Source of the DNA: Ianthella basta
Lineage: Eukaryota; Porifera; Demospongiae; Verongiida; Ianthellidae
NCBI GenBank assembly: GCA_964019415.1
Contig: OZ025884.1
Location: 3,727,193 to 3,791,192 of the forward strand
Direction: 5' to 3'
DNA length: 64,000 nucleotides
The notes under the pieces were generated by a model that saw only the letters and a list, made by a program, of their open reading frames with translations, was not told the DNA's origin and searched no databases. A program made the translations under genes and the position numbers. Positions 2,950 through 64,000 of the stretch are shown one piece after another; within the stretch, counting starts at the first letter, position 1; the number at the start of each line of letters is the position of its first letter.

Positions 2950-3182
2950 AATGAAGTGAGGGCTATTCAGCTGGCGTAGGCATGAGAAAGGGCCGGGCTA
3001 CTTCTCCAATTGCAAATACCAGCTTGATCTAACATGGTTTGAAGCATTGCCAACGTTTGAACCCTCAGGGCTTAAAGCATTGTCGCCCTGAGCGAGACCA
3101 GAGCATCTGGTCAAAACGTCATGCAGCAAGGTTTCAAACCATGTTGCATCAAGCTGGTACTTGGAGAACTAACCCCTTTCTC
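2950..3182 (+). mobile_element. Hairpin element HP1, copy 1 (SINE-like)
   Basis: A roughly 233-bp insertion with a leader (aatgaagtgagggctattc) followed by a long imperfect hairpin whose arms meet near 3070-3110. It is flanked by a 10-bp direct repeat, atggtgtgct, at 2940-2949 and 3183-3192. It is absent from the matching place in tandem copy B. It is the most diverged of three HP1 copies; the others are at 28283-28505 and 34664-34876. Confidence 0.7.
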
Positions 3183-3431
3183 ATGGTGTGCTGTGGATAC
3201 AAAAGGATAGTTATGTGCTAGTCTGTAGCCACTGCCTGGCAACAGCTACTTCGGACAAGAATTGCAAGAAGCTAGCCATAACTATTAAAGGTTGTAGAAG
3301 GAATCGCAAAAGCTCTATGTGTGCAGAGCTTGCATTACTGAAACTGCAATGCACTGACATAGTTATATGCTGCTGGATGGTGTACCTGCAGCTGTATATG
3401 TGCAGTACCTTAACTGACAGTAGTGAAGAGT

Positions 3432-3476
3432 ATGTTGCAACAATTGCAGTTCACTACAGCCGCAGCAGTAAACATG
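3432..3476 (+). pseudogene. Relic of a sushi-gene signal exon in copy A
   Basis: The sequence beginning ATGTTGCAACAATTGCAG matches the start of the intact signal exon at 7183 but lacks the hydrophobic core and the splice donor. It is the first exon of the gene as duplicated with its 5' flank and then decayed. No further sushi exons follow in 3490-4290, so the duplication copied only the promoter side of the gene or the rest was lost. Confidence 0.55.
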
Positions 3477-3490
3477 TTTATATATAGTTG

Positions 3491-4290
3491 ATAACAATTA
3501 AGGAGGAATGTAGTAAGTAGCTGTGGTACTATAGTTATAGTTATACTGTGGTCATTCCTGATGTGTGTATATATTATAGTAGTTAAATGTACATACGTGT
3601 GTGTATTATATGTGTGCTCATGATTGAGTTGCTGTGGTAACCATATGTCGTATATACAATGTACATTGCATTCATCAAACTGACGTACTGTTTCCTACCT
3701 GATCAGTGTAGTATAGCCTAGAAGTGATCAGTTACAGTAATAATGAATATAATTGTGACTGCATGTTTTATAAAGCATGCATAGCCATGGTGACAATGTA
3801 CAATCAAGCTATAACAACCCCCTATAGGCATATATCTGAATGACATCATCCCTGCTAACTATCACAAGCTCACATAGCCATGGGCACAAAGGGTGCAGTA
3901 AAGGAACAGAGGAACTCAAGTATTGTACTGGCAAATGTATTTTTACTGATTCAAGAAATAAAAATTGATTTAATCACACACAGTGAAGGGACAGTCAGCT
4001 ATATTCAGCTAAGTACATGCTGAATTTGTTATAATTAATTCAAATTAGTTAGCTACAAATGACCAACACCTTACATGTTCTGCTATACATGTGACTACTT
4101 GCATGCATAAGTACATGGCCAAATCCAAGTCTTTTGAGTCATATGCACTTTGCTATTTATGCAGCATCAGCAAACCCCACTTCTTTTACTTGATGCGATA
4201 TAAAACACTTATGCATGTGACCATAGACATAATGCCAGTATAATGATACCTGGGGCACCCACAAACTTTCCCTTTGCATTCAACAATATC
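3491..4290. other. Spacer between tandem copies
   Basis: AT-rich sequence between the end of copy A and the start of copy B. I see no gene, no splice-flanked open frame and no obvious inverted repeat. If the duplication is a clean tandem, the matching segment lies upstream of the window. Confidence 0.5.
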
Positions 4291-7252
4291 ACATTAAGTT
4301 AATCTTTGGAAGATCTTTTGTTGAAGATTATTCCTCTGTTGCATGCATGCACATACAAGTGTATGGAACATGAACTCCTTGATCCATGATCATTCATTGC
4401 CTGAGACTATATATTACAGGATTATATAGTAAATGTATATTGTACAGTTATACAAATACTTAGCTTGCAGCCCGTGAACGTCTGCATACGTACATAATGT
4501 AGCTGCCTGGATACATAATTGTACTTTTGCAGGATGTGGTTGCATTAGTCAGGGTCAATGGTACGGCTATGCACGTGGGAGAAGCCTTACGCTCCTGTCA
4601 ACCTAATTTCTATGTTTTCACATGTGTCCCACTTTAACATGACCAAATATGGTATTAACTCATACAGTAACAAGATGGTGCATGACGCGCGGTTGCCTAG
4701 GTAATACATAGTATTTCATTGCTCCATTCATCTTATATGGTGCAGTTGTGTGGGTGGAAGTAGGAGTGACTACACTGTTGTAAAGTGTCAGCAATTATGT
4801 ATGCATGTGCCTAAATGGGAAACTAAGTGTCATATGACATAATGATTAGAATGAGAATGCTTTGAACTGCATTTAGTAATGTTGTAAAACTGTATTGCTT
4901 GTAACTGGATAGTCCATTGAACTAAAACCTAGCAAATTCATACATACAAATATGGGTATTGCTTGTACACACACATTGTGCTATTTAGTGTTACATTTCA
5001 TATACCATATACACTAGACAATGCAGTGTGTGGTAAAATCAAAGCTCCAGTGTACGAGATGGTGCAGGTTTTTGGTAACAAATTACAGATCAGACTGCAC
5101 CTTGTAGTAGCAGGTCTAGAGGCTGCACAGTTTTGTATGGAGAAAGCCAATATCCTAGGACATGCAGTGCCATGACATTGAAGGAAGCAATTCCTTCGGT
5201 GCAAACTGAACCATGCTAAGGAAGCATTCTTGTGAGAAGTCACCAAGTATTGTTAGTGAAATAGAATTGTGGTTTCTTCAGAAAAATATGTTTACTACTG
5301 CCTCAATCATGCCAAAGAGACATCATGCCACTTGCATGAACACACTGTCCTGAGCTACCTTGCTAAATACGGATTGCACCATGCATAGTGTATTCCACAT
5401 CACATGCAGGATGCAGCTGCACTTCCTCAATCACATGCTTCCACACATATACAGTCAATGTGTTCTGCATATTATTCTGTAGTACATTATCTCACAACTG
5501 TGCATAATTTGCACAACTAAAAATTATGTTCATCCATTGTCAGTACTCCACATGAAACATACAAAACACTGGATTCTGGTGTTTGTGAGGAATTACATCT
5601 GCTATTAATGTATTTTATCAGTTACCAATAGGCTACAGGATGCAGTTACACTACAGTTGTATTTCAGCTGCAGTGGACTTGTGTGAGCTATGTACATACA
5701 CACCATCCGGTGAGGAGCAGCCATATAAGTTGCTCTGGGCAAACAGTTGCCTGGCAACTTTATCAAAAGCATTTGTTGAACAGGATGCACTGACTGCAGG
5801 AGCTAGGATGTGGGTGCATGCTAGGCAATCTGTAACTTTGGGTATACGTATACAAGGGCTCTATTGATTCTAATAAGCAAGGCAATGGTAATATATAGTA
5901 TTTCATATTTTGCCTAGGTAATATATAGTATTTCATTGCTCCTTTCATCTTATATGGTGCAGTTGTGTGGGTGAAAGTGGGAGTGACTACACTGTTGTAA
6001 AGTTTCAGCTATTATGTATGCATTATGTATGCATGTGCATAAATGGGAAACTAAGTGTCATATGAAATAATGATTAGAATGAGAATGCTTTGTACTGCAA
6101 TTTGGCAACTTGGCATTTGCTCCATCAGCTTGTAAAAAGCTGTATCATACAAATATCAAAATTATTGACACAACAATAGACAGTGTTCACTATACATTTG
6201 CAATGCACATTGCATCATACATAGTACTGAGCAGATATCTCTATGTTTAAGTCCACAGACTGCAGCTGCTAGTATCCATTATAGGTCTGCCTGTATGGTG
6301 CAGACACCAGGACACTTGGGTCAAGTAGAAACTGTTGTGAGGTGACCCAGGGTCTAACTCAGGCAGGAGAAAATAAGAGTAAATCTTCATTTGTGGGCAG
6401 ACCCAGCCTATGGGTACCTCTGTCTGGGTCAGGAGTAAAGTGGGGTTTTGTACCGTTGACAAAACAGCTTTGGCTGCTGAAACAACGTGCACTGGTGTGT
6501 GATCATGAGATGGAAATACACCTGCAGAATTAACAGTGTCGATCTCATACATGTTGCTCCTAGTAATAGCTACAAAAAGAAAGGTAAAATGCTTTTGAAA
6601 GCAAAACCACAAAACCACTAGGCAATTGTCAATTGGGCTGCGTAGGCATGGTACAGCGGATTTATGCAATCTTGCAACAGTTTCAAATCTTGGGCAGCTG
6701 TTACCTAGGATACGGACTGTGTGACATCATAGTTGTGTACAATTTTGGTTCGTAACCTAGGTAACGACTACCCACAGTTTGGGGAACCTGTTGCATGATT
6801 GCATAAATCCGCTGTATCCTTTGCTTTGCATTTCTAATTAGGTTGCTAGGTAACAGCACATGGCAACCTAATCAGGCCTCCTATGGTTGCTAGGACAATG
6901 TATAGTGTTCTCTCTTCCATATGTATTCTGTAACCTTGTGCTGTGGATATAAAAGGATTGTTACTGGTTAGTCAGTAGCCACTGCAGAGCAACAGTAAAC
7001 TTCGGGTGAGAATTGCAAGGAGCTGCGTAACTATAAAAGGCTGCAGAAAGAAAAGTCAAGAGCTCTCTGTGTGTAGGTCTTCACATTTCTGGAACTGGTA
7101 TTCACTGAATGTTCATATGAACAGCTAAGTATGTTCCTGTCTGTTGTACTTGTGCAGCCTACCTAAACTAGCGGTGAAGAGAATGTTTCAGCTATTGCAG
7201 TTTGCTGCAGTTGCAGCAGTACTGCTGGGATTGAGTGCGGCAGTTAGTCATG
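4291..7252 (+). repeat. Tandem duplication, copy B (5' flank and first exon of the sushi gene)
   Basis: Second copy of the unit that begins the window. It runs directly into the signal-peptide exon of the secreted sushi gene at 7183, so it is the promoter-proximal copy. It has a single version of the mariner-type MITE block at 6654-6814, where copy A has one filled and one empty version. X-box-like motifs (gttgcctggcaac at 5746-5758, gttgctaggtaac at 6842-6854) are kept in both copies. Confidence 0.93.
6654..6814. mobile_element. Tc1/mariner-type MITE, copy B
   Basis: Orthologous position and nearly identical sequence to the element at 2633-2793, with the same flanking TA dinucleotides. It was therefore inserted before the large tandem duplication. 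Confidence 0.75.
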
Positions 7253-9840: not shown

Positions 9841-11570
9841 AGCAGAAACACACACACACATATTGTGAGACGTAAAGTTTAATTAATTAGGCAGTGCACT
9901 AACAGCTTACTATGGCTCATACTTACTATGTATGATTCCATCCAATTGTAGTTAAACAATGTCATTCATACTATTACATTTGCATACATGTACTACTAAA
10001 ATATAATACTATAATGTGTCTTTGAAAATCGTTTATTCATTCATTTACAATCATTACTGTATGCATTATGCAGCAAGCAAATTTGGTGAATCATTCAAGC
10101 CATGTTACAATTGCGGTGCACGACAAATCTATGAATGTGACTACTGCAGCATGAAAATGATCAGTGAACGCATGCTATACCATCTTTGACAGAGCAAGAT
10201 ATTTCATTTTCAACCACAAATCACAAATTATGCAGTATAATTATTCAATTTCCGTAAGGTTCCAAATTGATGAAAGAAATGAAATGTAAATAAGTAATGC
10301 AAATATCACTAAACTGTTCACCCAAAGAATTATTATAGAGGCAAAAAGTTTGTATGCGCAAAAATTTCTAAATTAATAAAAGCACCCTCCAAATTCAGCT
10401 AATGAAGTTAAATCAAGTAAAGGCCCAGTGTGAAAGGTTTAGCAGTGAGTTGCATAACTGAATGCTGGAGTATGTTGAGACTGGATGTCTGAGAGCTGCT
10501 TGTGTACTTTAGATAATTTCACTACCCTCACATGCTGTCCCAAGGCAGCTAGTACCTATAGTAGCTATACCGTATATGACCCTTGTGCCCGTGTATGCTG
10601 AGAGAACATGCAGGTCAAAGTGAAGGGTCCCCAGGGCCCATTTGGGATAATTGCACACATAATAGAACATGCTTTGAGACCCTAATTCCATCTTTACATA
10701 TGTGGTCATGGAACAGCTGCATACTGGTAGGAGACTGTAGTGTGGTCAATACATGAGTCTAGAAGATCACTGGTGGCTAGCATGATCATGATAGTAAACT
10801 CAAAGTGTTGTAGCAGCAAAAGTACCACTATACGTAGTTCATGCAAGCTTCACTCAGAGTTATTGATAACACAATCAATGTTTGAATTTTAAATTTATAT
10901 AACATACAAATACTGGATTGATTAGGGAAACCACACTAGCCGGTAACTTGAGAAAGATTTCAAGCTACCGGCTAGTGGTTTTCCTAATCAATCCAGCATG
11001 CAAGAACCTAGCCACAAAGAAGTTCTTCAGCATACAAATATGCATCATCAGTGTACATAGGTTGTAGGGTACTGCCTAGCATGGGCACAACATGCTACCA
11101 ACTGCACTGCATAGCTAATCATGAGGGAAGTAACACAGAATGATAAAATCCTAATTATTATTACTGGTTTATCACCTATCACTCCTGCATGACAACAGAA
11201 AACAGCAAACATATAACCCTAATTGGGAGACTCCCAATTAGGCTGAGCCTCCCTTATCCAGACATTGTAGTTGCAGGCACCTCCCTCTACTGGGCAGGAA
11301 AAAAAGTTTGCATAAAATAAAAATTACAGCAGCAATCATTTAGTAGTGCAGTGGTTTAGGCACTGCCCATTTTCAGTACTAGTAATTAGAAATTTTATTA
11401 TATTATTCTTATGTAATTGCTTCTCTTAGTGATTTATTTTGAGTGTACAAAAATATTACATTAAAATCCAAAAAATTATAACTTAAAAACTTTTAATATG
11501 TGTACTGTATTACAGTTTAATTGTAATTATGGTAAATACATTGCATTTTAACCTTATTGTTGGTACAGTA
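9841..11570. other. Intergenic, repeats only
   Basis: No supported gene lies between the sushi stop codon and the NLR relic. It contains a foldback element at 10913-10996 and a perfect short palindrome at 11218-11242 (cctaattgggag arms around one base). Confidence 0.6.
10913..10996. repeat. Foldback MITE
   Basis: An 84-bp palindrome with arms of about 38 bp: ctggattgattagggaaacc at the left and its complement, with few mismatches, at the right, plus a short loop. No coding capacity. Probably a MITE or MITE remnant. Confidence 0.75.
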
Positions 11571-11575
11571 TTTCT

Positions 11576-16400: not shown

Positions 16401-19400
16401 TTTGATCTATGTTAACTGCGAAGTATACAAAGAAGTCAAAAAAGGAACATGTGGGTTGCGAAGGACACAGTGCCCTTCAGTAGTATTATCTCTCCCTCAC
16501 CTCAGAGCAGTTCGATGCAGTTTAGAGCTAGCCTGCTGAAGTAGGCCACAGCTTCATGTGCATGGGTACGGGGTTATTGTACCTACTGTTTTGTTCAGAA
16601 TCTTCCTCCTTATACCCACTTTGATGTCCATCTGTGCAAATGTTGTAAGATGTCAGTACTTTTCTGTTGGGCCTCCCTCTGACAGAGGTAACTAAGCCAT
16701 GGTGAGCATTCTCATGGATAGACGTCTTTCTGAAATGCAGATAACATGCAGAAGAGCAGCTAAACTGATTCACTACGTCATTTTGAACAAGCAATTGACA
16801 ATGCTGTCAATGTATTGGTGTCATACCCTTGAGCCTTATGATCTAGAGTTAGAGACACCTCTTGGAAAGCATTTGCATATCTAGTATGCATGTAGCTGTA
16901 GTGCCTAATTCAAAGCTGCAACTGGGATCCTTCATACAAATGAAGCCAATCAAAACAATTAGTTCCCTTTCATTACAGACCACAACATTCAACCTACCTC
17001 ATTGTGTAAACGATTATTCTGCTACAATCCTCAGTGACCTACAGTGAAGCATATAGCACATTATTACAGTGCCACATCACCGGGCATGCTGAGCACATGC
17101 AGAAAACGAGGCCTCATAGAGACCATACCCCGTGCACGTGGAGACTGTGTAGACCTAGCTATATAAAGCAAACTCTTTCCGCATAATTATGGCCACTGAC
17201 CGTTTAGTCTGGCTTGCTAGACCGTCCTGTAAGCGCCCAGAGGTGCGGAAGGGGATGGACCATCGACCCGCAAAAGACTAGAAAGAGCCGTTCTAATAGC
17301 TTTTGCGTGGTTGTTGCAGTCCTCGATTGTATACAGGCTGTTTTTTTGTGAAACCTATCTTTCAGGAGCTACATGAGCCTTGAAAGTGCCTTAATCACAC
17401 AAACAGCCCAAAAAGTGCGCCAGACAAACTGACACACAATCCAAATGCATAACCCCTGTTGCGCAATCGCGCACGGGGTAAACATAGTTGTCTATCTCTA
17501 CTGCTAGTAGCAGAGATGTGTAAGTACTAAGTCCTGCTATATGTAGCTAGCTTTCAACTCATCAACAACCTTTAACCTTTTATATTTCTCCTCAGTTATG
17601 GATTTTGACTTCATCTCTTTAGGCTGTATCTCTTCTTCATGATCATCTGTTAGATCCTATTCACCAGACCTTCCTGAGCAGTCCTCTCAATGGACATTGG
17701 TATGAGATGTAGTGTGTCACATGAATTAAAATGTGGCATTCCCAACTGAGACAGTTCCTTTCCACAAGCTGAGTTAACTCATCTATTTGCTGCCAGACAA
17801 TCCTTCCTCTGTAGAACTACCTGATAGCTATGACAGCTCTTAAACAAACTTAGATACCACCGTAGATTAGTCATCAGTTCTTTGGTTCATGCAAATGATG
17901 ACTGATACATTCCGTATAGAATGAAGTCACATTCATTTTTGTATGATCAAGTGCACACTTTAATTCACGACAAAACCAGAAATATCTTCAGAAAATGGTG
18001 AGGTACATACCTGGTCAACCGAAGCATGTGTATAAGACTGAACAAAAACCACTTTAGAAATGTAGGTGCAAGTTGAACGGTTAATTGGCTTATCAGATAA
18101 TTTTCCCCTCCCCATTTATTGTAGATTGAGTTGGGGTCTATTCTTCCAGAGGCATTCCAATATGCAAGATCACTTGTTTATGACACATTCAAGCAAGACC
18201 TCACAGACAGTATGCACAGGCCACAGTTCACCAAAGTAGCTATAATGCAGAATTACCCTCAACCCAGAAAGAAAGGAGACATAGATGACAATGAGATTCT
18301 CAAACAATACCGTGACTGTGGTGTTCGACTGTCCGAGGGAGCTACCGAACTAGTGACAGTCAGAGACTTTCTTCATAAAGGACCTTGTCGAATCAGGGTA
18401 ATTTACGGGCAGCCTGGCACAGGTAAAACCACTTTCCTCAAACATATGTGTCAGAAAGTGGCCAATGATGAACCCAGTGATTTCTCACTCATTCTTTTCT
18501 TCCCACTGCGTGACAAAGCAGTGTCGCAAGCTCTGAATAACTCCACCCCATATAATTCTGGCTTGAATCAACTTCTCCAGTACTACATCTCTGATGAGTC
18601 TTGTTCTGAAATCGTTTCAGAAATGCTGCAGCTTCGAGGAAAAGGTGTTCTTGTCATCTTTGATGGAGCCGATGAGGTGCGTGGCCTAATGGATAGCCCT
18701 GATGGTTCCCTTCTAGCAGCCTTTTTGGAAGGTCGTTTACTGCCCCAAGCACATATCATTGTGTCCACCCGACCTGGTGCATGCCCCCTTCTGCAAGAGC
18801 ACAGCACTTCCTTCTACGTGATTCTCGGATTTGATGAGGAATCAGTCGAGTTGTACATAGAAGATTTCTTCAAGAGTGAGCCAGGCAAAGGGAAAGTCAT
18901 GTTGTCTAATCTAAGGGCTCGTCCAGACCTCATGGGAGGTGCTTACATCCCAATGAACCTATTTATCTTCTGTTGCATTTATGAACATGGTGTTCAAGGC
19001 AAGGCAGCATTCCCTGCAACAATGACCGCATGCTACAACTCGTCAATTGCCAAGACCGTCACTCGAGAGAAACAGAAAGTGAAGAAATCATCACGTATTG
19101 ACCCGTCACTCACTAACGTACCTGATGACATTGCAGAACTCTTGTCCAACCTCGGTAAGCTTGCCTTCATTGGCCTCACACAGGACACTCCCAACTACAT
19201 TTTCCAAGAAGAAGAAGTGCGTGATGTTTTCGGTGCTACAATCAAGCATGATGTGATCCTTGAGGATTCATACTTTCTAGGCTTACTTCACTTGCACCCT
19301 GATCAAAATGGTTTATCGAGTACACTTAGCTTCAGTCACACTACGAAGCAGGAGTACTTTGCCGCTTACCACCTCGCTTCATTGCCCAAGGCAGAACAAG

Positions 19401-22400
19401 TTTCCTTCTGGAGAACAAACCATCATAACCCCAATTTTGCTGTTGTCCTGAAATTCTTTGCTGGTCTGACACAGTTCAAGTCATCAGAGATCAGTGCCAT
19501 CTTCACTTCACATTCTGACTTACCATCAAAATGTGACTATAACAATCCTCACCTTTTGTATGGGTTTCATACTCTGTTTGAGTCTCAAAATGAGTCCCTC
19601 ACACAGAGCATTGTCACTCAGTTGAACACCTGTCTTACTTTTGATTTGTACTTCACTCCTTTTGACACCATGGTTCTTAGTCACTGCCTCACTAAGTGTA
19701 AGCACCTGACAGAACTGCACTTATGCCATCCTGTACCCCCCACCAGTTTCCATCATGTGTGTTTAGTTGTACAGTCCAATCCTCTATTGCAGTCGCTGAC
19801 ACTGCGTGTGGACTGGTTTTCCCCTGAAAGTGAGTGCAATGCACTACTTGTAGCTGTCAGCCCTGTTATATGCAGGTCGTGCAAATGCTATCCTGTTAGT
19901 AGTTGCATGTTAGCTTAAGTCTGTGAAGTATATAGCCCTTTATGTAGAGTTGTGTTTTCAACTTTATTCCTGGATGTAGATGCCCGGGAACTGTGTGAGG
20001 CTGCTATTTCGCTAAAGACATTAGAGCTGACTGTGGAGCAAGGCTCCAAACAGTTTTCCACTTCAGAGGCACTGGCTGTGATCTTTGACCACAAATCATT
20101 AGAGGAATTGGATCTTATCCCCTTCCAAACTGTTGAAGTACGTAAGAAGTGCTTATATACAGTAACCATATCGTAACTATATAATTGTAGCTGTCAGCCA
20201 TGTTATATGCAGGTCATGCAAATGCTATCCTGTCAGTAGTTGCATGTTAGCATTTTTGCATGCACTACAAAGTTGGTCGATCTCTCTGGTTATGTGGTTC
20301 CAAATCCTGATAATTACATGTGATGGCTGTGATTCACGCTACATCATGTGTGTTGTGGTAGGCCTTCCTAGCTTTTTGCTATGTCACACTCATTTCTTGG
20401 CAGCTAGAGTAGCATATGAAATGAATCACTATTGACTATCATGCAGTATCGCAACAATTGATTCACAGATATAACTGTAACAAACCCCCTGAATTTTATT
20501 ACAGTACTTTTGATAGGAGTACAGTGCTGTAGTCAGCTGCCAGAGCTATTGGCGTGTGCACCAAACAACTGATTGTTAAATGCTATATTACTTGGGTTGT
20601 TTGCCTTATGGAAATTGTCCATTTTTCTCTATAAAATAAGGTAATGGCCTTACTGTGTGGCGAAATGTGATGTGAACCAGTTTGACATGCATCACATTGT
20701 GTAATGGATTTGTCAGTGTATCTCTCCGTTCTTGTCAACATTGCTGCTATACTCTGATCCACACAATAATGCACACTGCTCCCTCCCTGCTTCACTGTAC
20801 ATTATGTCCATGCAGCTAGCTGACAGCAGTGTATTGAAGGAGAAGGTCGCACATTGCCATCTGAGGGTACTCCGACTCACTGCTGACAAAGCCCAGCTTC
20901 CTTCTATTCTGAATGGAGTCAAAGACAACTGTTCTATAGAAGATCTTGCTGTTGCAGGTGAGTTTATCAGTACTGCATGCCTTTAACTACACCATACCAC
21001 ATGCGTACCTACTAGTTACATTTGTATGAAGCCAGTGGCAACTAAGCATGCTTGGTCTTGGGGGGCTGCTTGGTTGCAAAGCTAGTACCAGTGGCAAATG
21101 TAGGAAATGGGATGGGGGAGGGGGCCAGGAAGAGGTCAGCCTGTAGAGCTCAAGGGTCCAGGAAATCCTCCCCCAGGGAGAAGTGTTTTTCATGGTTTTT
21201 TATTAAGGCTCACATCAGCCTGCTAGCTACTACTTTCAGGTCCCTTGCTAAGCATTCAAGTTGTCATTTTTAGTGTTTTTCCATTCACTGATCTTCTCCA
21301 TAGCCTAATTCACGCCTGAAAGAGCACCATCTGCTACTGCAATACCGTGGCCCTTTTTTATGTTGTCACTGATTAGATAAAATGGCTGTCTTGATAAATT
21401 GATATTGTTGTGCTTGATTGATTTGGTAGAGGCTCATAGCTGTGATTGTAGATTTAGCAAATAATTAGATGAGCGATACTGCAGCTTGAAGAAAGGAGGG
21501 TCGCAGGACGTTTCGGCTCGAGAGCCTTTGTCAACTGCTTACAGTGTAACACTGCAAGCAATTGACAAAGGCTCTCAAGCCAAAACGTCCTGTGACCCTC
21601 CTTTGTGCTTGATTCTTTGGCTAAAATTGAAATTGGATAAGTATTCAAGGAAATAGGACCAAATATTTCGGGGCTGGCTAACTACTGCATCAACAGTTAT
21701 TTATAGCTGATGATACCTTTGAGCCATCTGCAGTGTGTTGTAGATGCATGTGTACATATATAAATGAATGAGTTGATTGTGAGCCCCATAATTTAAGGTC
21801 CTTCCATGCAGTCAATATTACCATGCAATCAATGTTATGATTCTCTACCTTAGATCCAACACTAGGTGATCATACACCTCTGGCTGTGGCCAGCTGTGTT
21901 CAGGCCATGCCTCAGTTGCAAACGCTTTACATGCGTTGGATTGATCCTCTTCCTGTGCTCCAAGCACTGGTGCATAGAGACGGACCTTTGGACTGTGTTG
22001 AAATGTGTACACCACAATGGGTATGTCATAACACCATTAAATTGCATTGGGCATATTGTGGACTGAAGTATGCATGCAGTTGATTTATGTAGGACATACA
22101 TGCTGGGACACAGTGCTACAGAGTTTAGGGGTAAAACTGTGTGTTGCAGCTGAAAACAACAGCGACAGTATAACATTGTTGACAATGTTTTGAAGCTTAG
22201 TGTATTACTGAGCTATAGTGTTTGCCGTAGTGTACACTGTGATTTGACCATTTCAGTTGTTTAAATCATGTGTGCATAGATGTGGGCTTCACACATAGCA
22301 CATATATAGATGTTGTTAACCCAGCCCTCTCGTGTCTGTTGAACAAGAATCCACTTTGTATCCATCCACAACTTGCTCCTGAAGTCATGTCATTCAGTAC

Positions 22401-22615: not shown

Positions 22616-22780
22616 CTAGAGCAAAAACACTAAAAAAAGGAAGAATTCACTATTGTGAATTGCAACGTTAACCAGCGCATGAAAAGCCAATGTAAACTCC
22701 TTTACTTTCACTTAGTTATGCAGCTTGCATGCAGTATGCAGTCGGCCATTTTCGAGTGCACGTGCACTAGCAATATGCAT

Positions 22781-24235
22781 ATGGCTGCTTTGGCTGTCGA
22801 GGAACCAGAGGCGAAGCGACTTTGCACCACTACGGTGAAACTACGTCCTGTATCAAGTGTTAACAAACTTCGCGAGAGGTACACTGAGGACAACGCGGAT
22901 GTGGTCTTTGTGGACCAAGAGACCACGAAGAGGCTCCCAGCTCACAGAGAAGTGCTGAAGGTCGCTTCTGATGTCTTCTTTCGCACGTTCAGCGGAGACT
23001 GGAAGGAGAGTGTAGAGAAGGAGATCAAAGCCCCGAAAGAGTACAGGTGGGAGTCCTTTAAGGCAGTTATTGCTCTTGTGTATGGTGAAGAAATTGAAGT
23101 GGAGGAGGCTACCATTCCAGACATATACGGGTTAGCACACCTCTACGACTTTAGGGAGGTGACAGCCATGTTAGGCAGTGCGATCCGTCAGTGGGACAGC
23201 CACTTGTTGGAGACTGTAGTGAAGCTGTGTGTCCTTGCACAAGACAGGCCTGAAACAGGTACTGGCATAGGCCTACTGCATCCAACTCTACAGTACATTG
23301 CTCGTCATCTAGAGCAGGTGCAAGCGCAGTCTGTGGATATCGCTCACTTATCATATCACACAATGCTGATGCTTGTTCAGTCTGAGGATGTCACAAGTGC
23401 AGAGCTTGTTCTTCTCCAGGTCCTCAATCAGTGGACGAATGAGCATTCAGATATATCTTTGAAGCAGGCAAAGCAGTTGTACTTTCATATTCGTTTTGGC
23501 ACTATCCCATTTGAGAGTTTGACTGAGTGCATTGCTGCAACTGGCCATGAACACCTTGAATTGGCTGTTCTGAATCGCCAACAACTGACGATTGATCGTG
23601 TCCGAGTCAACGTACTCCAGGTGACCCCTCGCATGAGTCAGAAGGAAGTCTTCAAGGTGTATCCAATGGCTACAGGATTTGCATTATCAAGGCCAGAAGG
23701 AAAATACCGATATTCTCATATTTCGTTCTCTCCTGCTGTGGCAGTGATGTACTCAAATAGAGAAGACTTGGAGTTTGAGATAACTCACACTGTTGATGTG
23801 AGTGTGGATACTAGCTATGAGAGCTATGGTCATATAAGAAGTCATGCCTTTGATATGAGTGTGGATACTAGCTATGAGTGCTATGGTCATACAAGAACGG
23901 TACCATGTCTTGTTTGTGAGTTGTCCAGTATGACAGTGGTAGAAGAAACTAAGACAGTCAAAGTCGATTTAAGAGAGCATGACCACTTACTGAGAAATGC
24001 CTCCAAAGCAGCAATGATCTTCAGGCGTATCCGTGTCACGCTCAGTGGTGCTGGAGCTTGTCTGAACTTCCACCCTGACCTAGAGTCATATGAAAGTGTC
24101 ATTGATAAAACTGTATTCAAGACGGTTGATTTGCCTTATAGCCGTCCATTTCCTTGGCTCATGACTTTTAGTGTGGATAAGGGTAATGATTATTCTTTTG
24201 AGTTTACCCATCCCATTGTGCCCAAAGACCAGTAG
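22781..24235 (+). CDS. BTB-BACK domain protein, single exon
   Basis: Intronless frame of 484 residues from the ATG at 22781; ATGs at 22775 or further upstream are possible. The BTB/POZ fold is at residues about 30-130 (ADVVFVDQETTKRLPAHREVLKVASDVFFRTFSGDWKE, quoted here only as DVVFVDQ ... LPAHREVLKVAS ... FF). A BACK-like helical region follows (about 140-270), and then a C-terminal beta-rich region that is not a recognisable Kelch or MATH domain. Such proteins commonly act as substrate adaptors for Cullin-3 ubiquitin ligases; that role is inferred from the family. A 57-bp in-frame duplication lies in the C-terminal part. The gene starts 165 bp after the NLR stop on the same strand, and its lack of introns contrasts with its neighbours, which would fit an old retrocopy. 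Confidence 0.82.
   Translation: MAALAVEEPEAKRLCTTTVKLRPVSSVNKLRERYTEDNADVVFVDQETTKRLPAHREVLKVASDVFFRTFSGDWKESVEKEIKAPKEYRWESFKAVIALVYGEEIEVEEATIPDIYGLAHLYDFREVTAMLGSAIRQWDSHLLETVVKLCVLAQDRPETGTGIGLLHPTLQYIARHLEQVQAQSVDIAHLSYHTMLMLVQSEDVTSAELVLLQVLNQWTNEHSDISLKQAKQLYFHIRFGTIPFESLTECIAATGHEHLELAVLNRQQLTIDRVRVNVLQVTPRMSQKEVFKVYPMATGFALSRPEGKYRYSHISFSPAVAVMYSNREDLEFEITHTVDVSVDTSYESYGHIRSHAFDMSVDTSYECYGHTRTVPCLVCELSSMTVVEETKTVKVDLREHDHLLRNASKAAMIFRRIRVTLSGAGACLNFHPDLESYESVIDKTVFKTVDLPYSRPFPWLMTFSVDKGNDYSFEFTHPIVPKDQ
23795..23908 (+). repeat. Two 57-bp in-frame repeats in the BTB gene
   Basis: The unit gatgtgagtgtggatactag ... recurs 57 bp later (23852), encoding DVSVDTSYESYGHIR and DMSVDTSYECYGHTR. 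The second unit is close to the first, so the duplication is recent. Confidence 0.85.
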
Positions 24236-24712: not shown

Positions 24713-24786
24713 GAGATGACAGGGAACCGAATTCAAAATAAATTCAGTCAGCAGTTTTGGTTGTGGTTGTGACAGGGTGCTGCACG

Positions 24787-26777: not shown

Positions 26778-29700
26778 ATGGCGGCAATGGATGATGTGCA
26801 AGTTCAAGAGGAATACGACGAGTTTCGAAATGAAGATGGTCAGTTTGTATATATTCAAGGTTTCCTCTGTTGGTGTTTCTAATGGTTTCAATTGCTTTAC
26901 CCTTTGTCCACGGGCTTAGATGCTGTTACTCGTTTGAAGCAATCGGCCACCAGAAAGAAAGGAAGAGGCTTTGATGGTAAGTAGAAGGGCAGAAATGACG
27001 ATCTAGGGTAAGCAGATTAGCGATGTGACCCAAGGGTATGTACAGTATATCTGTAAGTCCATGAACTGTTCGGTAGTGGAGGTTGTTCAGTTACACATGA
27101 CACATGTATTCGCGCGTTTAGCTGATAGTTATGTGCTAACGTAGGCCATTCATGCTTATCAGCTTCCCTACATCGTTAACTGTTGTATGCTAATGCTGTA
27201 CAGAGAAACTGTCGTGTTCCACTGATGGAGTGTGTAGTAATGTATGGTACCCTGGCGGTCTAGACTGGACTGCTAGCTTGTCTTAATGTGTGTACCAATG
27301 TTCTTACAACGTTATTGGCCATTCACCATGATGTGCGTGTACCAGATGCTGCATTTTTTCCCCATGTACCTGGCTTGAGGCAGATTTTATTACAGTCGAA
27401 GTTGCTAGCCATCTGAATGGCTGTATACACATGTATAGACATGTGGTTGTTAGTCTAACTGTTTCTCCAAGCTTAACTAACTGTTTCTTCAAGCACTTGC
27501 CGCAATGAATGTTGGGATGTTGCTGGCTAGACAATGTACGTAATAGTGTCTATCCCTTGTGCCTGCAGACAGAGGAGATATGATGGACACTGATGCATTT
27601 GAGTCAGTGGCTACTGAAGGTGGACAGGGACCACTGAGATGTGAGCAGCCTGCTGTGCATGTTAGCACTGCTACTGTTGCATACTAGGCACTTGCAATTG
27701 TATCTATAGCATTATCACATGCATTAGTTGTAAGATATCCATGGGTATGAATTCTAAACAATTGTTGCACTAGTACATTCACTGTCTTCAGTTTGAAATG
27801 CTAGTATTTTGTGCCATAGTCCAGTTTGGTCAAAACTGAATGTGTTTTTGTGTATAGTTGTGAAAGAGCTAGTGATGTTGCCTTTTACATCTCTTGTATC
27901 CAGCTGTTGAGGGGTGGATCGTGTTTGTCACTGGAGTACATGAGGAGGCTCAGGAAGATGACGTAAATGACAAATTTGCGGAGTATGGTGATATCAAAAA
28001 CATTCACGTAAACTTGGACCGCAGGACAGGCTACCTCAAGGGGTATGCCCTGGTAGAGTATGAGACACTGAAGGAAGCACAGGCGGCCATCGACAACCTG
28101 GATGGTGCAGACATTCTGGGGCAACGGATCCATGTCGATTGGGCCTTTGTGAAGCCACCAGCTGGAGGGAGAGGGAGAAGGTAGGTAATTTAGTGTCAGA
28201 ATGGTTGTGGAAAATGTTTAACTGAAATCATCGTGTTAGTTACTGGAGTACATGAGGAGGTTTAGGAAAATGATGTAAATGAAGTGAGGGCTTCTCAGCT
28301 GGTTCAGGAATCGGAAAGGGTTGATTCTCCAATACCAGCTTCACAACAGGGTTGAAAACCTTGCCGACGTTTCAACCAGATGCTCTGGTCTTCTTCAGGG
28401 CGAAGATTCTTCTTCACCCTGTAGAAGACCAGAGCATCTGAGCCAAATGTCGGCAAGGTTTTCAACCCTGTTGTGAAGCTGGTATTGGAGAACCAACCCT
28501 TTCAGATGATGTAAATGACAAATTTGCAGAGTATGGTGATATCAAAAGCATTCACGTAAACTTCCAGGGCGAGGATCTAGATACAGAAGTGTGTACTGGG
28601 TGCTGATTCAATGGTCTTTGGCTAGACAGAAGCACTAATAACAAATGGCCATGGCAGTGATGTGGAACAATGGAAATTGGAGGATAATTTTTTTTCCGGC
28701 CTGGTTGGTTGGCTTGAGCTGCTGAAACCCCGCGTTAGGGCGTAAGTTGTCCTGGGTTTGGCTGCCAGCTGGTGTCAATTTTCCCTTTCTTTCCAACATT
28801 TCTTCCAAGTCGTGACTTTCATTAGACTTAACACTGAAATCATCAACTGTTACAAGTAGCAGCATTCACTTCACTTGCTGCTACTACTTGAGTGGGTAGT
28901 GTACCCATCTACGTTGGCTTACCTGGTATGGGGAGTCCAGCATTGGCTACTGTAGCACTATTCATTGGGCCACTTTATGCATTATTAGCTGCATTATATG
29001 TTAGATCTGCTTAATGCTGTGCTGACGTACATAGTACCACACATTGTGTGATCTAGATACAGAAAGTGTGTATTGGGTGCTGGTTCAACGATCTTTGGCT
29101 AGACAGAAGCACTAATAACAAATGGCCACGGCAGTGATGGGAAACAATAGAAATTGGAGGATAAAGCCCTCTGAAAAGCAGAATTGGTCATCTCCATCCC
29201 CTTACAACCCTTTCACGGAGGGCAGCTTTTTCAGTACCACAGGTTTGGAGCTTATCAAGGCTCTTGTTAATCTTCAAGACTGCCTCTGATGCTTGCACAA
29301 TGACTCAGTTTCCTAAATCAATTTGTGCAGGATGGCTAGTTGACTTGAGTAAGTCGTGGAAGAAGGCACAGCCAAAGAGTACCTTTGAGGCTTGCCACTT
29401 ACGACAAACATGTACCCACCATTGGCTTATAATTTGTCCTTGTGCACTTTACATTTAAGGAGGCCTGTCATGCCAAATTTGTCCCCCCCCCCATAATTAG
29501 GCCCTCTGCAGAACTGAAACAGCAACTGAAATGATTCCCCCTCTGCTAAAATCACCAGCGCCAGCGCGGATTGACGGTCAGATTCATTGTGTACTTGTAC
29601 CCTAACATCTTTCTCAAGTTGGGACACACTCTCAATCCGGGACAGCATGTTTTGTTTGATGAAAAGGCAATTTCGTTCATTAGATGGGCACTTTGGTTCG

Positions 29701-31623
29701 ATTTATAGGCAATTTCGTTCAATGAGTGGACAATTTTGTTCAGTGAATAGACGATTTCAGCTGACATGACGTCGCTGCGCGCTCAAGATCTACGTACCAC
29801 AACAACGAATATTGGCTGACAAAAGGGACTTTGTCACTACAGCGGAGCCGTTATAGCAGCCATTTTCTGCCGTTTTTGGCCCAGCGGAATCATTTCGGCG
29901 TGGGGAACTTTTACGCCATGACAGGCCCCTCAAACCTCCTTGTGAGGCTAAAAGTGACTTTGACTGCTTTTGCATATTCAGTAGAATGTCCTGCTGCTCA
30001 TACGCAATGAAATGGCACAGGCTTTGTCATTGTGGTAATCCAACCCCAAACCTGCGCTGTGATACTCCTTCATCTTTGAGAATGCCAGCTTCTCCTTGGT
30101 TATCATGTAGCTATGCTTCTTTCAACATTCAAGACCCACAAAGACTGTGCTTGCACCTTTGCAATTCATGAATGTGCCTCTTTGGTGGCATGAGGTTCAT
30201 TGTCACCAGTCGATGATCACTAGGCAAAGCACACCCTGACAATGAGTGGACGTTCTTCACAGATCGCTTGAATTGGTTGGAAATGGCAATGTAGTCGATC
30301 TGATTGTAGATAGGTATTGATTGCATTGTCTGAGCCGTGGTGGTATCCCTGCCATGTGGTAATGTGTCTAGAGGTGTGTTTGAAGAGGCTGTTGGCAATA
30401 TAATGAGGTTGGAACATTCACAGAAGCTCAGGCAAGCCTCTCTATTTTCATTGCGTTTCCATTTTGACCAAGCACCGATACAAGAGTAGGTGTCATTATC
30501 GTGTCTCTTCCCGATCTTGGCATCTTGCAGTGCCAGGAAGTCCAACTTGTAGCGCTCAAAGTCTAGGCCCAGTTGTTCCAACTTGAGGTTTGACGAAAGA
30601 CTTTGGCAGTTATGAGTAGCAAATAGTAGGGGACGCACACAACGAGAGAAGAGATGTTGAGTCAAAGACTTTGGGACAAAGCCCGGCTGTGTCAAGCCCG
30701 AGATTGAAATTACCGCCATTTTAAGACTGTGCTTGCACCTTTACAATTCATGAATGATTGCAAGGCCCACTTGACTGCATGTACATAGCATGCATGTGCA
30801 TGTCAGTCTCTGTGCGGTCCAAACAGGTAGATATGCATACGTTAGATGTACATTTGGCTGATAATATTCCTTGTAGAAGGCACAAAAGAGGTGAAATTTG
30901 TCTTCAAAACCCTTTTGCAGGCATACTTCCAATAACAACTGCTCCTAATTGCAGTACACTTTATATATAGCCAGGCTGGTTAAAGCGATCTCCTTATGGC
31001 AGTGAATGACATTGTCTATTGCTGACATTAGGGATTGGAGAAGTATGAAAATGCCTCTTGATGAGACAGGATTGAACTGTTTTGGCATCCTACAATGGCT
31101 TGGAAGTTGTGCTCTTCAACATCAACAGATTCTGTTAACGTATAATCACTTCTCCCCAAAAAATTGTTATGCAGTGTGTTTATGCCATTGCACTTTTACC
31201 TCCTACTGATGAAAGAGGAACAATGCAGAACAGATGCAATTCATTGTAGAGAAATGCTTCTTAAGTTCAATAGTACTCTAAAAGGTATTTGAATAGATTT
31301 GTAGTCTACTTGGCATGGCACCACTGCTAAGAGCACTAGCTTAAACACAGCTGCTTACTGTGCTCTGAGGGTAGCTAGCTCTGTAATCAATACTTAGCTA
31401 TGTAACTATTACTGCATTTTCTTTTATGTGTCAGGCCCAAAAAGTGGTAGGGCCAAAGCCCTACTAGCCCTACTGCTTCCTACGGCCCTGATGATCTGGA
31501 AATGTTTAGTCTCTTGTTTCAGCACAGCTGTGCTAGCATGTTACTTAGCATGGCTTTGTATATAATGTAAGGTCGATTAACTCAAAACGTTTGTGTGTAA
31601 ATCCTTGCAGGGACCGAAGATGA
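26778..31623 (+). CDS. RBM8A: RNA-binding protein 8A (Y14), exon-junction complex
   Basis: Five exons: 26778-26838, 26920-26976, 27569-27640, 27904-28180, 31611-31623; 159 aa. All phases agree. The acidic N-terminus and KKGRGF segment are followed by [13 protein letters not shown], the start of the RRM, with RNP2 IVFVTG and RNP1 KGYALVEY; the C-terminus GRGRRDRR is basic as in Y14. The protein forms a heterodimer with MAGOH and is deposited on spliced mRNA upstream of exon junctions, acting in export, decay and localisation. The last coding exon adds only four codons and the stop; reading on past 28180 would give GRGRR and an immediate stop, so unspliced and spliced ends are nearly equivalent. 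Intron 4 (3.4 kb) is full of repeats and contains a broken copy of exon 4. Confidence 0.95.
28230..28564 (+). pseudogene. Broken copy of RBM8A exon 4 inside its own intron
   Basis: About 50 bp (28230-28282) matches exon 4 from gtgtttgtcactggagtaca to gacgtaaatga, and about 60 bp (28506-28564) continues it to cattcacgtaaactt. The two halves are separated only by hairpin element HP1. The left half has an in-frame TAG where the gene has CAG. The copy is close to the real exon and in the same orientation, so a local duplication is more likely than retrotransposition. Confidence 0.88.
28283..28505 (+). mobile_element. Hairpin element HP1, copy 2
   Basis: It inserted into the RBM8A exon copy, which gives exact boundaries: atgatgtaaatga (13 bp) occurs at 28270-28282 and 28506-28518, while the intact exon has the site once. 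The element has the leader agtgagggcttctcagctgg and a hairpin with arms of about 80 bp meeting near 28395. The arms include gccgacgtttcaaccagatg and its complement. Confidence 0.85.
28577..28687 (+). repeat. Direct repeat, left copy, RBM8A intron 4
   Basis: About 110 bp (from tagatacagaagtgtgtact to ggaaattggaggataa) recurs at 29053-29164 with about 90% identity. The intervening 365 bp begins with a T-run and may be a separate insertion. Confidence 0.8.
28688..28870 (-). mobile_element. Possible SINE-like insert
   Basis: On the minus strand the segment ends in an A-run (complement of tttttttt near 28689) after a moderately GC-rich body. It follows directly on one copy of the 110-bp direct repeat. 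I cannot place pol III boxes with confidence. Confidence 0.3.
29053..29164 (+). repeat. Direct repeat, right copy, RBM8A intron 4
   Basis: Partner of 28577-28687; it starts ctagatacagaaagtgtgta. Confidence 0.8.
29655..29759 (-). repeat. Five 21-bp repeats with a heptad reading on the minus strand
   Basis: Five degenerate 21-bp units (ttcgatttataggcaatttcg type) lie end to end. On the minus strand they read as seven-residue units ([28 protein letters not shown]), a coiled-coil-like pattern, in an open frame at 29552-29767. No gene model connects to it. It lies upstream, in transcription order, of nothing recognisable, so it may be a remnant of a repeat-encoded ORF. Confidence 0.6.
30175..30722 (-). 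mobile_element. LINE endonuclease fragment flanked by a 34-bp duplication
   Basis: The minus strand encodes a shortened APE-type endonuclease: [16 protein letters not shown] at the start, then [10 protein letters not shown] and [12 protein letters not shown] near the end (the SDH catalytic motif). The central part of the domain, between the LALQDAKIG motif and the segment that follows GDFN in intact enzymes, is missing. No reverse transcriptase follows. A 34-bp near-perfect direct repeat (aagactgtgcttgcaccttt..., one mismatch) flanks it at 30141-30174 and 30723-30756, as expected of a LINE-made insertion. The reading frame begins four bases inside the left end. Confidence 0.8.
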
Positions 31624-33557
31624 GGAGACACAGACAAGCTTTAGGAATAACATGTAGAGCACTAGTTTGCATGAAGCTCGGGTGTAACTGTTCTTATGAT
31701 TGGAGCTTTTTTCATCAAGACCTGGTATGATCCTACTTGCTGATTCCTATAACTGACAATAGTGAGTGCTGGGATGCTGTATACACGTGAGTCGCATTGC
31801 ACAGAGTAGAACTGCTGTAGTTGTAGAAGTCACAGATTAGCCAGAGTAATTGGGTTTAACTCTAAAAGCCACATGTGGCCACCATCTTGGATCATTACGA
31901 CATACAGTATCATCAGCACGTGCACAATGTACAAGTAACACTGCCTATAGTAATCATAAGCACTGTAAATCACACACATGTGTTTGCACAACCACATACT
32001 ACATAGTCATCACATGCTAGGACTATACCAACCCCACATGCATTTTGTATATACTGCTTGGCAGGAAATATGTTCACTTTGAACTTGCAGCTAAGGTGCA
32101 TCTTGCTTCCAGGCCTATTCTTCCCACCCAAGGAACAGAAATCCCAGGCTAAATGCCCCTAGCACGTGTCCCTTGTCGTTGCTTTTGCAGTGAATTTATA
32201 TAGGCACAGTGTACAAGAAATTCATGGGTGCATGCTATCAACTATTTACATAAGTTAAGCCTGGTAATAAGTGCTCAATATAATTATTGATCCATCATTC
32301 TTATATCTGTAAGAGATACTTGTGGCAATGCTCACTGTGGCAACCCACCCTGGCTCCTAGTTGCTAGGTAACAACCCACAAGTGTAAACAAATCTGCTGG
32401 GTGGAGCCTGTTAGTGGTGGGAGTGGCCCAAGAGTGGGGGCTGTGGAGTCCTTGTTTGCTTAAGCCTACCATAATCAGTAATCATATTCATTGTTTGCTC
32501 ACAGACAGACCTGTAGGCTTTGTTTGGCTGAGTGAGTATTTTAGTCATGTATCTGTAGCTATGATGATATTTATGGCATATGCTTAGGGAGGAAACGTTA
32601 GCAGTACTGTGAAGTTGCAGCAATGCATCAGTAGTCATTTAATTTTGCTGCTAGCTGTACTACTGTAGATGTGTATGTATAATTATAGTGCTACATGCAT
32701 GCACATGCAGATTTATTCTGCGTGACAGATTCTATCCCTGGCACGTATGAAGTCAACTTTGTGTCCACACAGCCTTGAGGCACAGCCCACACATCACAAA
32801 TGTATATATTATTGGGACAACTTATACAATTATGTATACATTGATGTAATTGTTAATTTCCAGGTGCATGTGCACATGTATAGTATACCACTGGGGGTGC
32901 TGCTGTTCACCACTGTTGGATAATTTGGCCAGGTACATTGTGAGCATGCATGCACTTCTGCTGGACACATAATGTATACAATTATGCCATGTGTGTGTGG
33001 TTGCACATTGCATTAATTCTGTGAATAGCATGCAGCCACAGACTTGTGCCTGCATGTGTGGTGTGTGTGTGTGTGTGTGTGTGTGGACATCAGACACTGA
33101 CAATGCAGATCACACCACCTTGGGCATATAAGCATGTTTGTTTGTTGACACTATACAAACATGTTAAGCATAATGCAGTGTCACAGATCGGCCACCTGCA
33201 GGCTATAACAGTATTCACAAGGTGCGTGGGTGTATCCGGATCCTAGTAGGAGAGGCTAGTCTGCCAGTTCACTGCAGTTTTCTTTACAGCCCCTTGGAAC
33301 CACGTGTGAGTGACACAGTGCAGATTACCTGGTAAATAGTCCTGTAGGTTTGTCTGTGAAGCGAGAGCAACAAAATGAAACTTATTCTCTCTGATAGAGC
33401 ATGCATTAGCGGAGCTGTTTTTGGCAATGATAAATCGCTGGGTTTAGGTAAAGATAAACATCAGCTATGGACGCTGTCACAAACAGGGTACGCTTTATCG
33501 GGTGGCATGCAGACGACACATACAAACATATGAAGAGTGGAGAGTTTTACCTTGCCA
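31624..33557. other. RBM8A 3' flank and intergenic repeats
   Basis: This region includes the probable RBM8A 3' UTR, an X-box-like motif (gttgctaggtaac, 32360-32372) and a (TG)n tract at about 33058-33085. I found no supported gene. Confidence 0.5.
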
Positions 33558-34035
33558 TAATTATATCACGGCTGATTCGCAACGGCAACTTAGTTTCATT
33601 GGCCGCAGATTGGGAATCGGGATTCGGTCTAGAGCTGTACTGTGGGAAAGTTGCTTTTTAGCCTTTTACTCTGTGAAAGAGGATGCAATCCATAGGAAAC
33701 TCCGTATCAAGGTGAGCAGAACAGTGGGTAATGTGCTGTAAAGGATAAAAGCGTTGTTTATGCTGTTATGTTAGCGATATTTTGGCAAACAATTGCTCGT
33801 ATTAAACGGCTCGTTGTGCGTTTCTCCGGGTTTTCCTGCCAACATGCTATGCATGTCGTGATAGCCCAACTACTCTACTACATAGAAAAGGAGAGCTTGT
33901 TCTTGAGCCATTTTCTTACTTAACGTTTTAAACGAAAATATAATAGAGACAGCTAATGAATAGTGCAGCATGTGTAGGGTAGGTGACTACACAGTGTACT
34001 TCCCTACGACCCCAGCTAGTGTGACTAAGTCTCAA
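33558..34035 (+). repeat. Large inverted repeat, left arm
   Basis: The segment from atatcacggctgattcgc to ctacgaccccagctagtgtg is the inverted counterpart of 35172-35650. The match is good in the inner 400 bp (for example ggataaaagcgttgtttatg against its complement near 35430-35455) and weaker at the outer end. About 1.1 kb lies between the arms. Confidence 0.8.
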
Positions 34036-34256
34036 TGAATCAAGAAAGTCTCTTTATTGTAGTTTCTGCTTTACCTTTGCTATATTGAATGTGCAGTTTT
34101 TGATTGTGTTACTGTTTCATGCATGCATGGTATAGCTGTTAGCTAGCTAGCTTTTTGATCTGAAAAGACATGAACAGTTCATGACTGTTATCCCAGCCTG
34201 GAAACTGCTGCAGTTGCAAGACTACTGACTAGGAACTTCCAAAGAAGCATATGCGA

Positions 34257-34385
34257 TGTGATGGCACTATTCAGCTTGCATATTTAATATATGTAGTTAC
34301 GTAGAAGTATAGTGCCATCACATAGTAATTCAGTGCACTACCAGTTCATACCTATAGGTATGAACTGGCTGTGTACTGAATTATA
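34257..34385. repeat. Two adjacent palindromes in the spacer
   Basis: The first pairs tgtgatggcactat (34257 on) with atagtgccatcaca (to about 34322). The second pairs aattcagtgcactaccagtt with its complement around the centre catacctataggtatg (34328-34384). Confidence 0.75.
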
Positions 34386-34663
34386 TTATCATGCATCCAT
34401 GCCTGCAAACGACCATACAGCAATAGTAGCTATGTATCATTGAATCAATTGAATAAAACATAGTATATTCAATAGTGACTCCTTCCAACATTGCATGCAT
34501 GTGTCATTGTGGACACATTTTTACTGTTCTACCGAGTAATTTCCCACATGCCAGCCTTGAAGAAAAGGAAGGAATGTCGGAACAATATCTTAGCACATAC
34601 ATAACATACTGAACTTATATATAATTATCTGCAGATTATGTAATACACCTAGACTTATTCAAA

Positions 34664-34876
34664 TGAAGTGAGGGCTTCTCAGCTGGCTCAGGCATCAGAA
34701 AGGGTTGGTTCTCCAATACCAACTTCACAACAGGGTTGAAAACCTTGCCGACGTTTCGACCAGATGCTCTGGTCTTCTTCAGGGCGAAGCATCTTCACCC
34801 AGAAGAAGACCAGAGCATCTGGTCGAAACGTCGTCAACCCTGTTGTGAAGCTGGTATTGGAGAACCAACCCTTTCT
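34664..34876 (+). mobile_element. Hairpin element HP1, copy 3
   Basis: The best-preserved copy, 213 bp. Leader tgaagtgagggcttctcagc, then arms at about 34698-34781 and 34802-34876 around a 20-bp loop. The arms contain gacgtttcgaccagatgctc. The flanks gacttattcaaa (34652-34663) and gacttatttaaa (34877-34888) form a 12-bp duplication with one difference. Confidence 0.88.

Positions 34877-39961: not shown

Positions 39962-64000
<24,039 letters not shown>

What the first reader, a model, noticed from the sequence alone, without database searches (positions are those of the whole stretch)
2950..34876. Hairpin elements with 10-13 bp target duplications: a possible hairpin SINE family
Three HP1 copies (2950-3182, 28283-28505, 34664-34876) and one HP2 copy (21420-21603) share one plan: an unpaired leader of 35-65 bp, then a hairpin with arms of 45-80 bp holding ACGTTTYG. 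All four have direct flanking repeats of 10, 13, 12 and 11 bp. Ordinary MITEs make short duplications of fixed length and have inverted repeats right to the ends; variable duplications of 10-13 bp suggest LINE-type target-primed insertion. The leader (tcagctggctcagg; tagaggctcatagctg) and gtttcgaccag/gtttcggctc resemble degenerate pol III A and B boxes. If so, these would be SINEs whose RNA folds into one long double-stranded stem. The TSDs are seen; the SINE nature is inferred.
Basis: partly seen in the sequence, partly recalled or inferred. Interest (0 to 1): 0.78.

Follow-up and report, generated by a model that had tools for sequence, protein, structure and literature searches.

The report
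Palindromic scars of Penelope-like retrotransposons
The hairpins are not a new SINE family but short double-ended insertions made by Penelope-like retrotransposons, whose messenger RNA seems to be copied onto both cut strands of the target, and their ends show where that copying starts and stops.

Summary
In detail: all four hairpins and their direct repeats are present, and HP1a has an empty paralogous site in the window. The SINE reading is not supported. HP1 and HP2 are insertions of two Penelope-like element (PLE) families; longer copies of each run into PLE genes. Of 75 distinct HP1 hairpins sampled, 72 carry the ~33-nt tail end on one side and the tail-less end on the other; none has two tails. 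Exact target duplications of 9-15 bp occur in 56 of 64, against 1 of 1250 shuffled pairs. Centres differ between copies (microhomology, filler), so most hairpins formed independently. Arms preferentially end about 30 nt downstream of a TATA box in both families, and HP1 sites fall from 1415 to 237 genome-wide across that point. Best reading: PLE mRNA is copied from two nearby internal start sites, one onto each nicked target strand, and the cDNAs are joined, giving a palindrome with one tail. This argues against the published idea of self-priming on antisense RNA. PLE inverted repeats and optional tails are already known; the one-start-site-per-strand rule and the start-site centre are what I think is new.

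The parts
2940..2949 (.). left TSD of HP1c (ATGGTGTGCT)
2950..3182 (-). HP1c: divergent HP1 palindrome, tail at left; PLE RNA sense of the tail-side arm reads on the - strand
2950..3058 (-). HP1c tail + first arm (R1-95, antisense on + strand)
3083..3185 (+). HP1c second arm (R126-32, sense on + strand), tail-less end
3183..3192 (.). right TSD of HP1c
21408..21419 (.). left TSD of HP2 (TTGTGCTTGATT)
21420..21602 (-). HP2 palindrome (second PLE family), tail at left, second arm starts internally (R2 73)
21603..21614 (.). right TSD of HP2
27918..28015 (+). empty paralogous site of HP1a: 98 bp, 92% identical to the joined flanks, no insert
28270..28282 (.). left TSD of HP1a (ATGATGTAAATGA; its last bases coincide with the element's first bases)
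28278..28407 (-). HP1a tail (R1-31) + first arm up to R130, the inferred mRNA 5' end
28411..28508 (+). HP1a second arm (R129-32), tail-less end
28506..28518 (.). right TSD of HP1a
34652..34659 (.). left TSD of HP1b (8 bp exact, about 12 with one mismatch)
34662..34789 (-). HP1b tail (R1-33) + first arm (to R128)
34791..34878 (+). HP1b second arm (R130-34), 88 nt for 97 ruler positions, so a 9-nt deletion (near R79-88 by eye)
34877..34884 (.). right TSD of HP1b

Best explanation
HP1 and HP2 are 5'-end insertions of two Penelope-like retrotransposon families. Shown by sequence: arms and tail belong to PLEs; TSDs; one tail per palindrome; arms tend to end about 30 nt downstream of a TATA box; centres are individually joined. 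Inferred: PLE protein cuts both target strands about 9-15 bp apart. The two freed 3' ends prime cDNA on sense PLE mRNA at two internal start sites about 33 nt apart (T, end of the tail; N, about R34), one on each target strand. cDNA runs to the mRNA 5' end or stops short, and the two cDNA ends are then joined by end joining. Because RT starts internally only about 130 nt from the inferred mRNA 5' end, an RNA starting there can give only this short product; longer palindromes need RNA that starts upstream.
For: Link to PLE. HP1: tail+arm continues past the TATA in L050, L053, L059, L068, which share sequence; the L053 ORF matches RVT_1 at 28.7 bits, just under Pfam's 29.6 cut-off, and ends in sequence I read as GIY-YIG-like. 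HP2: of three long copies extended by 2.5 kb, two run into a PLE ORF (49% identity over 540 aa to the L022 PLE in L190; 44% over 145 aa in L189), the third (L191) does not. End rule: 72 of 75 hairpins T/N, 2 T/internal, 1 N/N, 0 T/T; arm-sampled part, 31 of 33 T/N. One-armed loci of the arm sample start at T (9) or N (8), so N is a start site in its own right. HP2: 15 of 17 two-armed copies T/N, 2 T/internal. A third family with long arms (4 palindromes of 792-1554 bp, 99.4-100% alike): 4 of 6 palindromes joined have one tail and a 12-14 bp TSD (one TSD read by eye); the other 2 gave no TSD, one of them with a flank that reads N. Template 5' end: N-arms end at R128-131 in 35 of 67 and T-arms in 23 of 67 (the 8 best-hit loci left out); TATA first T at R160 (HP1) and 156 (HP2), HP2 arms ending at 125-129 in 14 of 17 T-arms and 12 of 17 N-arms; 26-base words at R62-87, R104-129, R133-158, R170-195 have 2023, 1415, 237, 213 sites, controls 0. 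Independence. Orientation: among neighbouring GIY-YIG hits 13 head-to-head, 2 tandem, 0 tail-to-tail (two of the 13 look like one duplicated locus); among the 100 listed of 237 R133-158 sites 26 head-to-head, 3 tandem, 0 tail-to-tail. Literature: a lizard PLE protein extends both target strands and starts RT at two internal sites whose gap is the 'tail' (PMC11167929, main text read).
Against: No RNA or protein data. [quoted passage not shown] Exceptions: L176 (N/N, no TSD), L146 (a compound with T..T and N..N units, left out of the count), and the L039/L169 pair (tail on both sides, no shared TSD seen). Central changes after insertion can also make arms unequal (L057/L063 against L068, same flank). 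Four copies with different TSDs share the 96/129-130 junction, so a little unit spread, or a hot spot, is possible. Arms match at the diagnostic site 53 (71 of 73), which self-copying would also give. Sampling covers 125 of the listed places plus 8 best hits, not the whole genome. The 26-mer counts depend on how well each word is conserved.
Confidence: 0.82

Rival explanations
1. Self-priming (snap-back): one cDNA, or an antisense RNA as proposed for rotifer PLEs, folds back on itself and copies its own arm; the palindrome comes from one priming event.
For: Arms agree at site 53 in 71 of 73. Some junctions (A..129/S119 with a 5-base overlap) look like fold-back annealing. In 15 of 67 hairpins the T-arm is at least 8 nt longer towards the RNA 5' end, which fold-back could give. 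Proposed in print for head-to-head PLE repeats (PMC3846280 Discussion).
Against: Each arm holds sequence that the other lacks: the T-arm has the tail, and in 33 of 67 hairpins the N-arm reaches at least 8 nt nearer the RNA 5' end than the T-arm, so there neither could be copied wholly from the other unless trimmed later. The second arm starts at R31-37 as a rule, which is also the start of one-armed insertions. The centre lies at the inferred sense start site.
Confidence: 0.1
2. A hairpin SINE/MITE-like family: the hairpin RNA or DNA itself is the mobile unit, copied by PLE enzymes.
For: Many copies; four share the 96/129-130 junction.
Against: Centre junctions, filler and lengths (149-344 bp) differ between copies; 66 of 81 distinct arm-specific differences are private, and 36 of 112 events fall on CpG; no A/B boxes above chance.
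Confidence: 0.05
3. DNA-transposon fold-backs (MITEs) with a transposase partner.
For: Inverted arms; a DDE transposase ORF pair lies in the window at 53588-54599, not tested for related ends.
Against: Variable 9-15 bp TSDs, an unpaired end on one side, and continuity with PLE genes.
Confidence: 0.01

Closest known systems
Penelope-like elements with inverted pLTRs and optional tail (Adineta vaga Pen2a and others, PMC3846280; passages and Discussion read)
   Same: Head-to-head inverted copies, TSDs of 8-10 bp in the cases given, a 31-bp tail on one of the inverted pLTRs, TATA in the pLTR
   Different: Here the inverted unit occurs alone at high copy number, its centre sits at the inferred sense start site, and the one-tail rule is counted; that paper favoured self-priming on antisense RNA
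Poseidon of Anolis (PAc), in vitro PLE (PMC11167929; abstract and main text read)
   Same: Two internal RT start sites separated by the tail; extension of both target strands; hammerhead at the ORF start
   Different: In vitro no strand difference in start site was seen; the text I read does not treat palindromic insertions; reads beginning or ending at the hammerhead cut were not detected there, whereas a few copies here end at that point
Metazoan type I hammerhead retrozymes (PMC7229834; one of six parts read)
   Same: Non-autonomous non-LTR elements of a few hundred bp in animals with TSDs longer than 4 bp when present
   Different: Those are direct tandem repeats with canonical hammerheads giving circular RNA; here arms are inverted and Rfam finds no hammerhead

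Membership tests
Penelope-like element insertion | RT related to PLE RT, with GIY-YIG endonuclease, in the parent element | tested here: met
   RVT_1 and GIY-YIG above cut-off in L022 and L025 ORFs; RVT_1 alone, just under cut-off, in the HP1 parent L053 ORF. The HP2 parent L190 matches the L022 PLE over residues 1-605 in two pieces that include its GIY-YIG region. Relatives of L022 carry RVT_1, PF28514, PF26215 and in part GIY-YIG
Penelope-like element insertion | pLTR with optional 30-40 bp tail at the 3' end | tested here: met
   about 33 nt in HP1, 29-35 in HP2, about 34 in the L017/L022 family
Penelope-like element insertion | TSD on insertion | tested here: met
   56 of 64 with 9-15 bp
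Penelope-like element insertion | hammerhead ribozyme in the pLTR | tested here: inconclusive
   CUGANGA..GAAAC core found by regex in HP1, not in HP2 (motif recalled); no Rfam hammerhead hit
SINE | internal pol III A and B boxes | tested here: not met
   no better than shuffles
SINE | pol III transcript | not testable with these tools
   no RNA data
MITE | terminal inverted repeats to both ends and fixed short TSD | tested here: not met
   one unpaired tail end and 9-15 bp TSDs
Retrozyme | tandem direct repeat with type I hammerhead | tested here: not met
   inverted arms; no Rfam hammerhead; ribozyme activity itself not tested

The most novel reading that the evidence does not exclude
Two RT protomers work in tandem on one and the same PLE RNA: one starts at N and leads, the other starts at T and follows, each primed by one strand of the same target break. 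This would explain the T+N pairing, the shared source variant in both arms (71 of 73), both arms ending together at the hammerhead-like cut point in L045 and L151 (expected 0.18), and the more frequent shortening of the trailing T-arm (26 against 12, p=0.03) (all).
Probability: 0.3. Interest if true: 0.82.

Novelty: new variant of a known kind. Interest (0 to 1): 0.62.

Why it matters
How Penelope-like elements make their head-to-head inverted copies was left open in print (PMC3846280). This genome holds more than a thousand tail-bearing HP1 sites, many of them short end-to-end records of the reaction. The copies sampled point to sense mRNA as template, to two start sites used once each, and to end joining of two cDNAs, and they make each of these directly testable.

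Tried and rejected
Rejected: SINE (A/B boxes), MITE/DNA transposon (TSD and end structure), a hairpin family spreading as a unit, retrozyme (no direct tandem, no Rfam hammerhead). Rfam 'miRNA' hits below gathering score on the hairpins I take for ordinary long stems. A target motif that would fix which side bears the tail was looked for in 56 copies: moderate AT richness (TSD 66% AT, flanks 62.5%, window 57%); the last three TSD bases are 73-76% AT with no C at the last one, which may come from overlap with the element's first bases; no clear motif beyond that. Shared rare variants in both arms: 5 against 1.5 expected, 119 unpaired, weak support for one source RNA. Species not determined: the protein search gave mostly unnamed sources. 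My first link of HP2 to a PLE (HP2 arms about 1 kb beyond the ORF in L025) may be a separate insertion; the link now rests.

Sampling and dropped rows: HP1 tail sample 70 loci of 1358 sites (from the 100 listed); arm sample 55 loci of 2187 sites (from the 100 listed), plus 8 best DNA hits, one of them the window's own HP1a. For one search, 133 loci were entered; 12 repeats of the same locus or duplicated insertion and the compound L146 were dropped, leaving 75 hairpins and 45 one-armed. Some 'one-armed' rows are in truth hairpins with a short or internally started second arm (L046, L047, L135, L140) or long copies cut by the fetched stretch. HP2: 20 loci fetched from the hits, chosen mainly for full length, plus the window copy; 4 of these 21 had no second arm in reach.

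Full report
Observation. Each is flanked by a direct repeat, and HP1a has an empty paralogous site in the same window at 27918-28015; for HP1c a diverged duplicate aligns across the joined flanks at 74.5%, which I count as weak. The HP1 leader occurs at 1358 places in the 209-Mb genome at up to 3 mismatches, with no match to the reversed control.

What they belong to. HP1: longer copies with the same tail and arm run on past the TATA. L053, sense strand, has an open frame with PLE-like RT motifs and an end that I read as GIY-YIG-like; Pfam gives RVT_1 at 28.7 bits, just below its 29.6 cut-off, while ORFs of L022 and L025 (other PLE families) pass both RVT_1 and GIY-YIG cut-offs. L039 joins the antisense HP1 arm to sense RT sequence. 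HP2: three long copies were extended by 2.5 kb; L190 holds a PLE ORF 49% identical to L022 over 540 aa and L189 a C-terminal piece, both reading towards the HP2 unit; L191 shows none.

Anatomy. I numbered positions R from the first base of the HP1 tail, antisense, using one locus (L053) as ruler. Of 75 distinct hairpins sampled, 72 have one end at R1-12 (T) and the other at R18-45 (N); in the 56 the N end falls at R31-37 in 47. Two have T and an internal start, 1 is N/N without TSD, none is T/T. In the arm-sampled part, which does not require a tail, 31 of 33 are T/N. One-armed loci in that sample start at T (9) or N (8), so both are start sites and free pairing would give about half T/N. HP2 shows T with N at 30-36 in 15 of 17 two-armed copies. 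In a third family, 4 of 6 palindromes show one tail and a TSD; the other 2 gave none. One long HP1 palindrome (L170/L171) is T/N with an imperfect 13-bp repeat read by eye; another pair (L039/L169) has tails on both sides and no shared TSD.

TSDs. 56 of 64 hairpins have an exact repeat of 9-15 bp, mode 12-13; 1 of 1250 shuffled pairs reaches 9.

Centre. Junctions vary in position, microhomology and filler. The hot spot for arm ends is R128-131: 35 of 67 N-arms and 23 of 67 T-arms. In the parent pLTR a TATA box has its first T at R160, 30 nt from R130; in HP2 the TATA is at 156 and arms end at 125-129 in 14 of 17 T-arms and 12 of 17 N-arms. Counting 26-base words over the genome gives 2023 (R62-87), 1415 (R104-129), 237 (R133-158), 213 (R170-195), controls 0. 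The drop falls where the TATA box predicts the start of transcription. Transcription itself was not measured.

Independent origin. Arms within a copy differ at 112 of 4590 sites (2.4%); of 81 distinct arm-specific differences 66 occur once, and 36 of 112 events are at CpG. Both arms share the base at polymorphic site 53 in 71 of 73 hairpins where it can be read, so both come from one source RNA type; C-type copies are older on average (arm divergence 4.2% against 2.1%) but the ranges overlap.

Hints about the reaction. T-arm short with N-arm full 26, the reverse 12, p=0.034. Two hairpins (L045, L151) have both arms ending at R86-89, expected 0.18; L183 shows 88/88, though the aligner did not place its second arm there; one-armed L040, L070 and L085 end at 87-88. 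That is the place where a hammerhead of the form CUGANGA..GAAAC..GUC (recalled motif) would cut. Rfam did not recognise a hammerhead, so this stays a hint.

Mechanism. I favour two-sided target-primed reverse transcription on sense mRNA with one start site per target strand, then end joining. It rests on published in vitro work (PMC11167929: abstract and main text read) and on the end structure here. The self-priming proposal (PMC3846280: passages and Discussion read) does not explain why the second arm starts at N, nor arms that each hold sequence missing from the other; later trimming could explain part of the latter.

Novelty. Searches of the held library (listings) and passages read in PMC8969392 and PMC12910113 showed inverted pLTRs, tails and both-strand extension in separate papers; in what I saw no paper joins them to a start-site-centred palindrome with one tail. 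Most subscription papers are not held, including the 2021 PLE survey, so this is a statement about what I could search.

Noticed in passing
window 1-2886 and 4291-6907: Tandem duplication with about 4.0-4.3 kb spacing, 97-100% alike in its longest blocks; HP1c lies just beyond the first unit
   Followed up: partly
window 37654-37962: A separate fold-back with 107-nt arms (88%) and a second inner inverted repeat; no match to the HP1 or HP2 rulers
   Followed up: partly
window 27918-28015 and 28213-28282: Duplicated exon-like stretch; HP1a sits inside one copy (the look of an RNA-binding protein is my own reading, not searched)
   Followed up: partly
window 53588-54599 and 55199-55723: DDE_Tnp_4 ORF pieces and a Myb/SANT-like ORF on the other strand, the make-up of a Harbinger-type transposon (name recalled)
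   Followed up: partly
window 58119-61026: Two minus-strand ORFs with zf-RVT matches (one below cut-off) and GA-rich simple repeats, LINE-like
   Followed up: no
window 18131-19915 and 22655-24232: NACHT-domain ORF and BTB/BACK-domain ORF
   Followed up: no
L039, L057, L063, L068: Four HP1-related copies share nearly the same left flank but differ inside, consistent with duplication followed by central changes in a palindrome
   Followed up: partly
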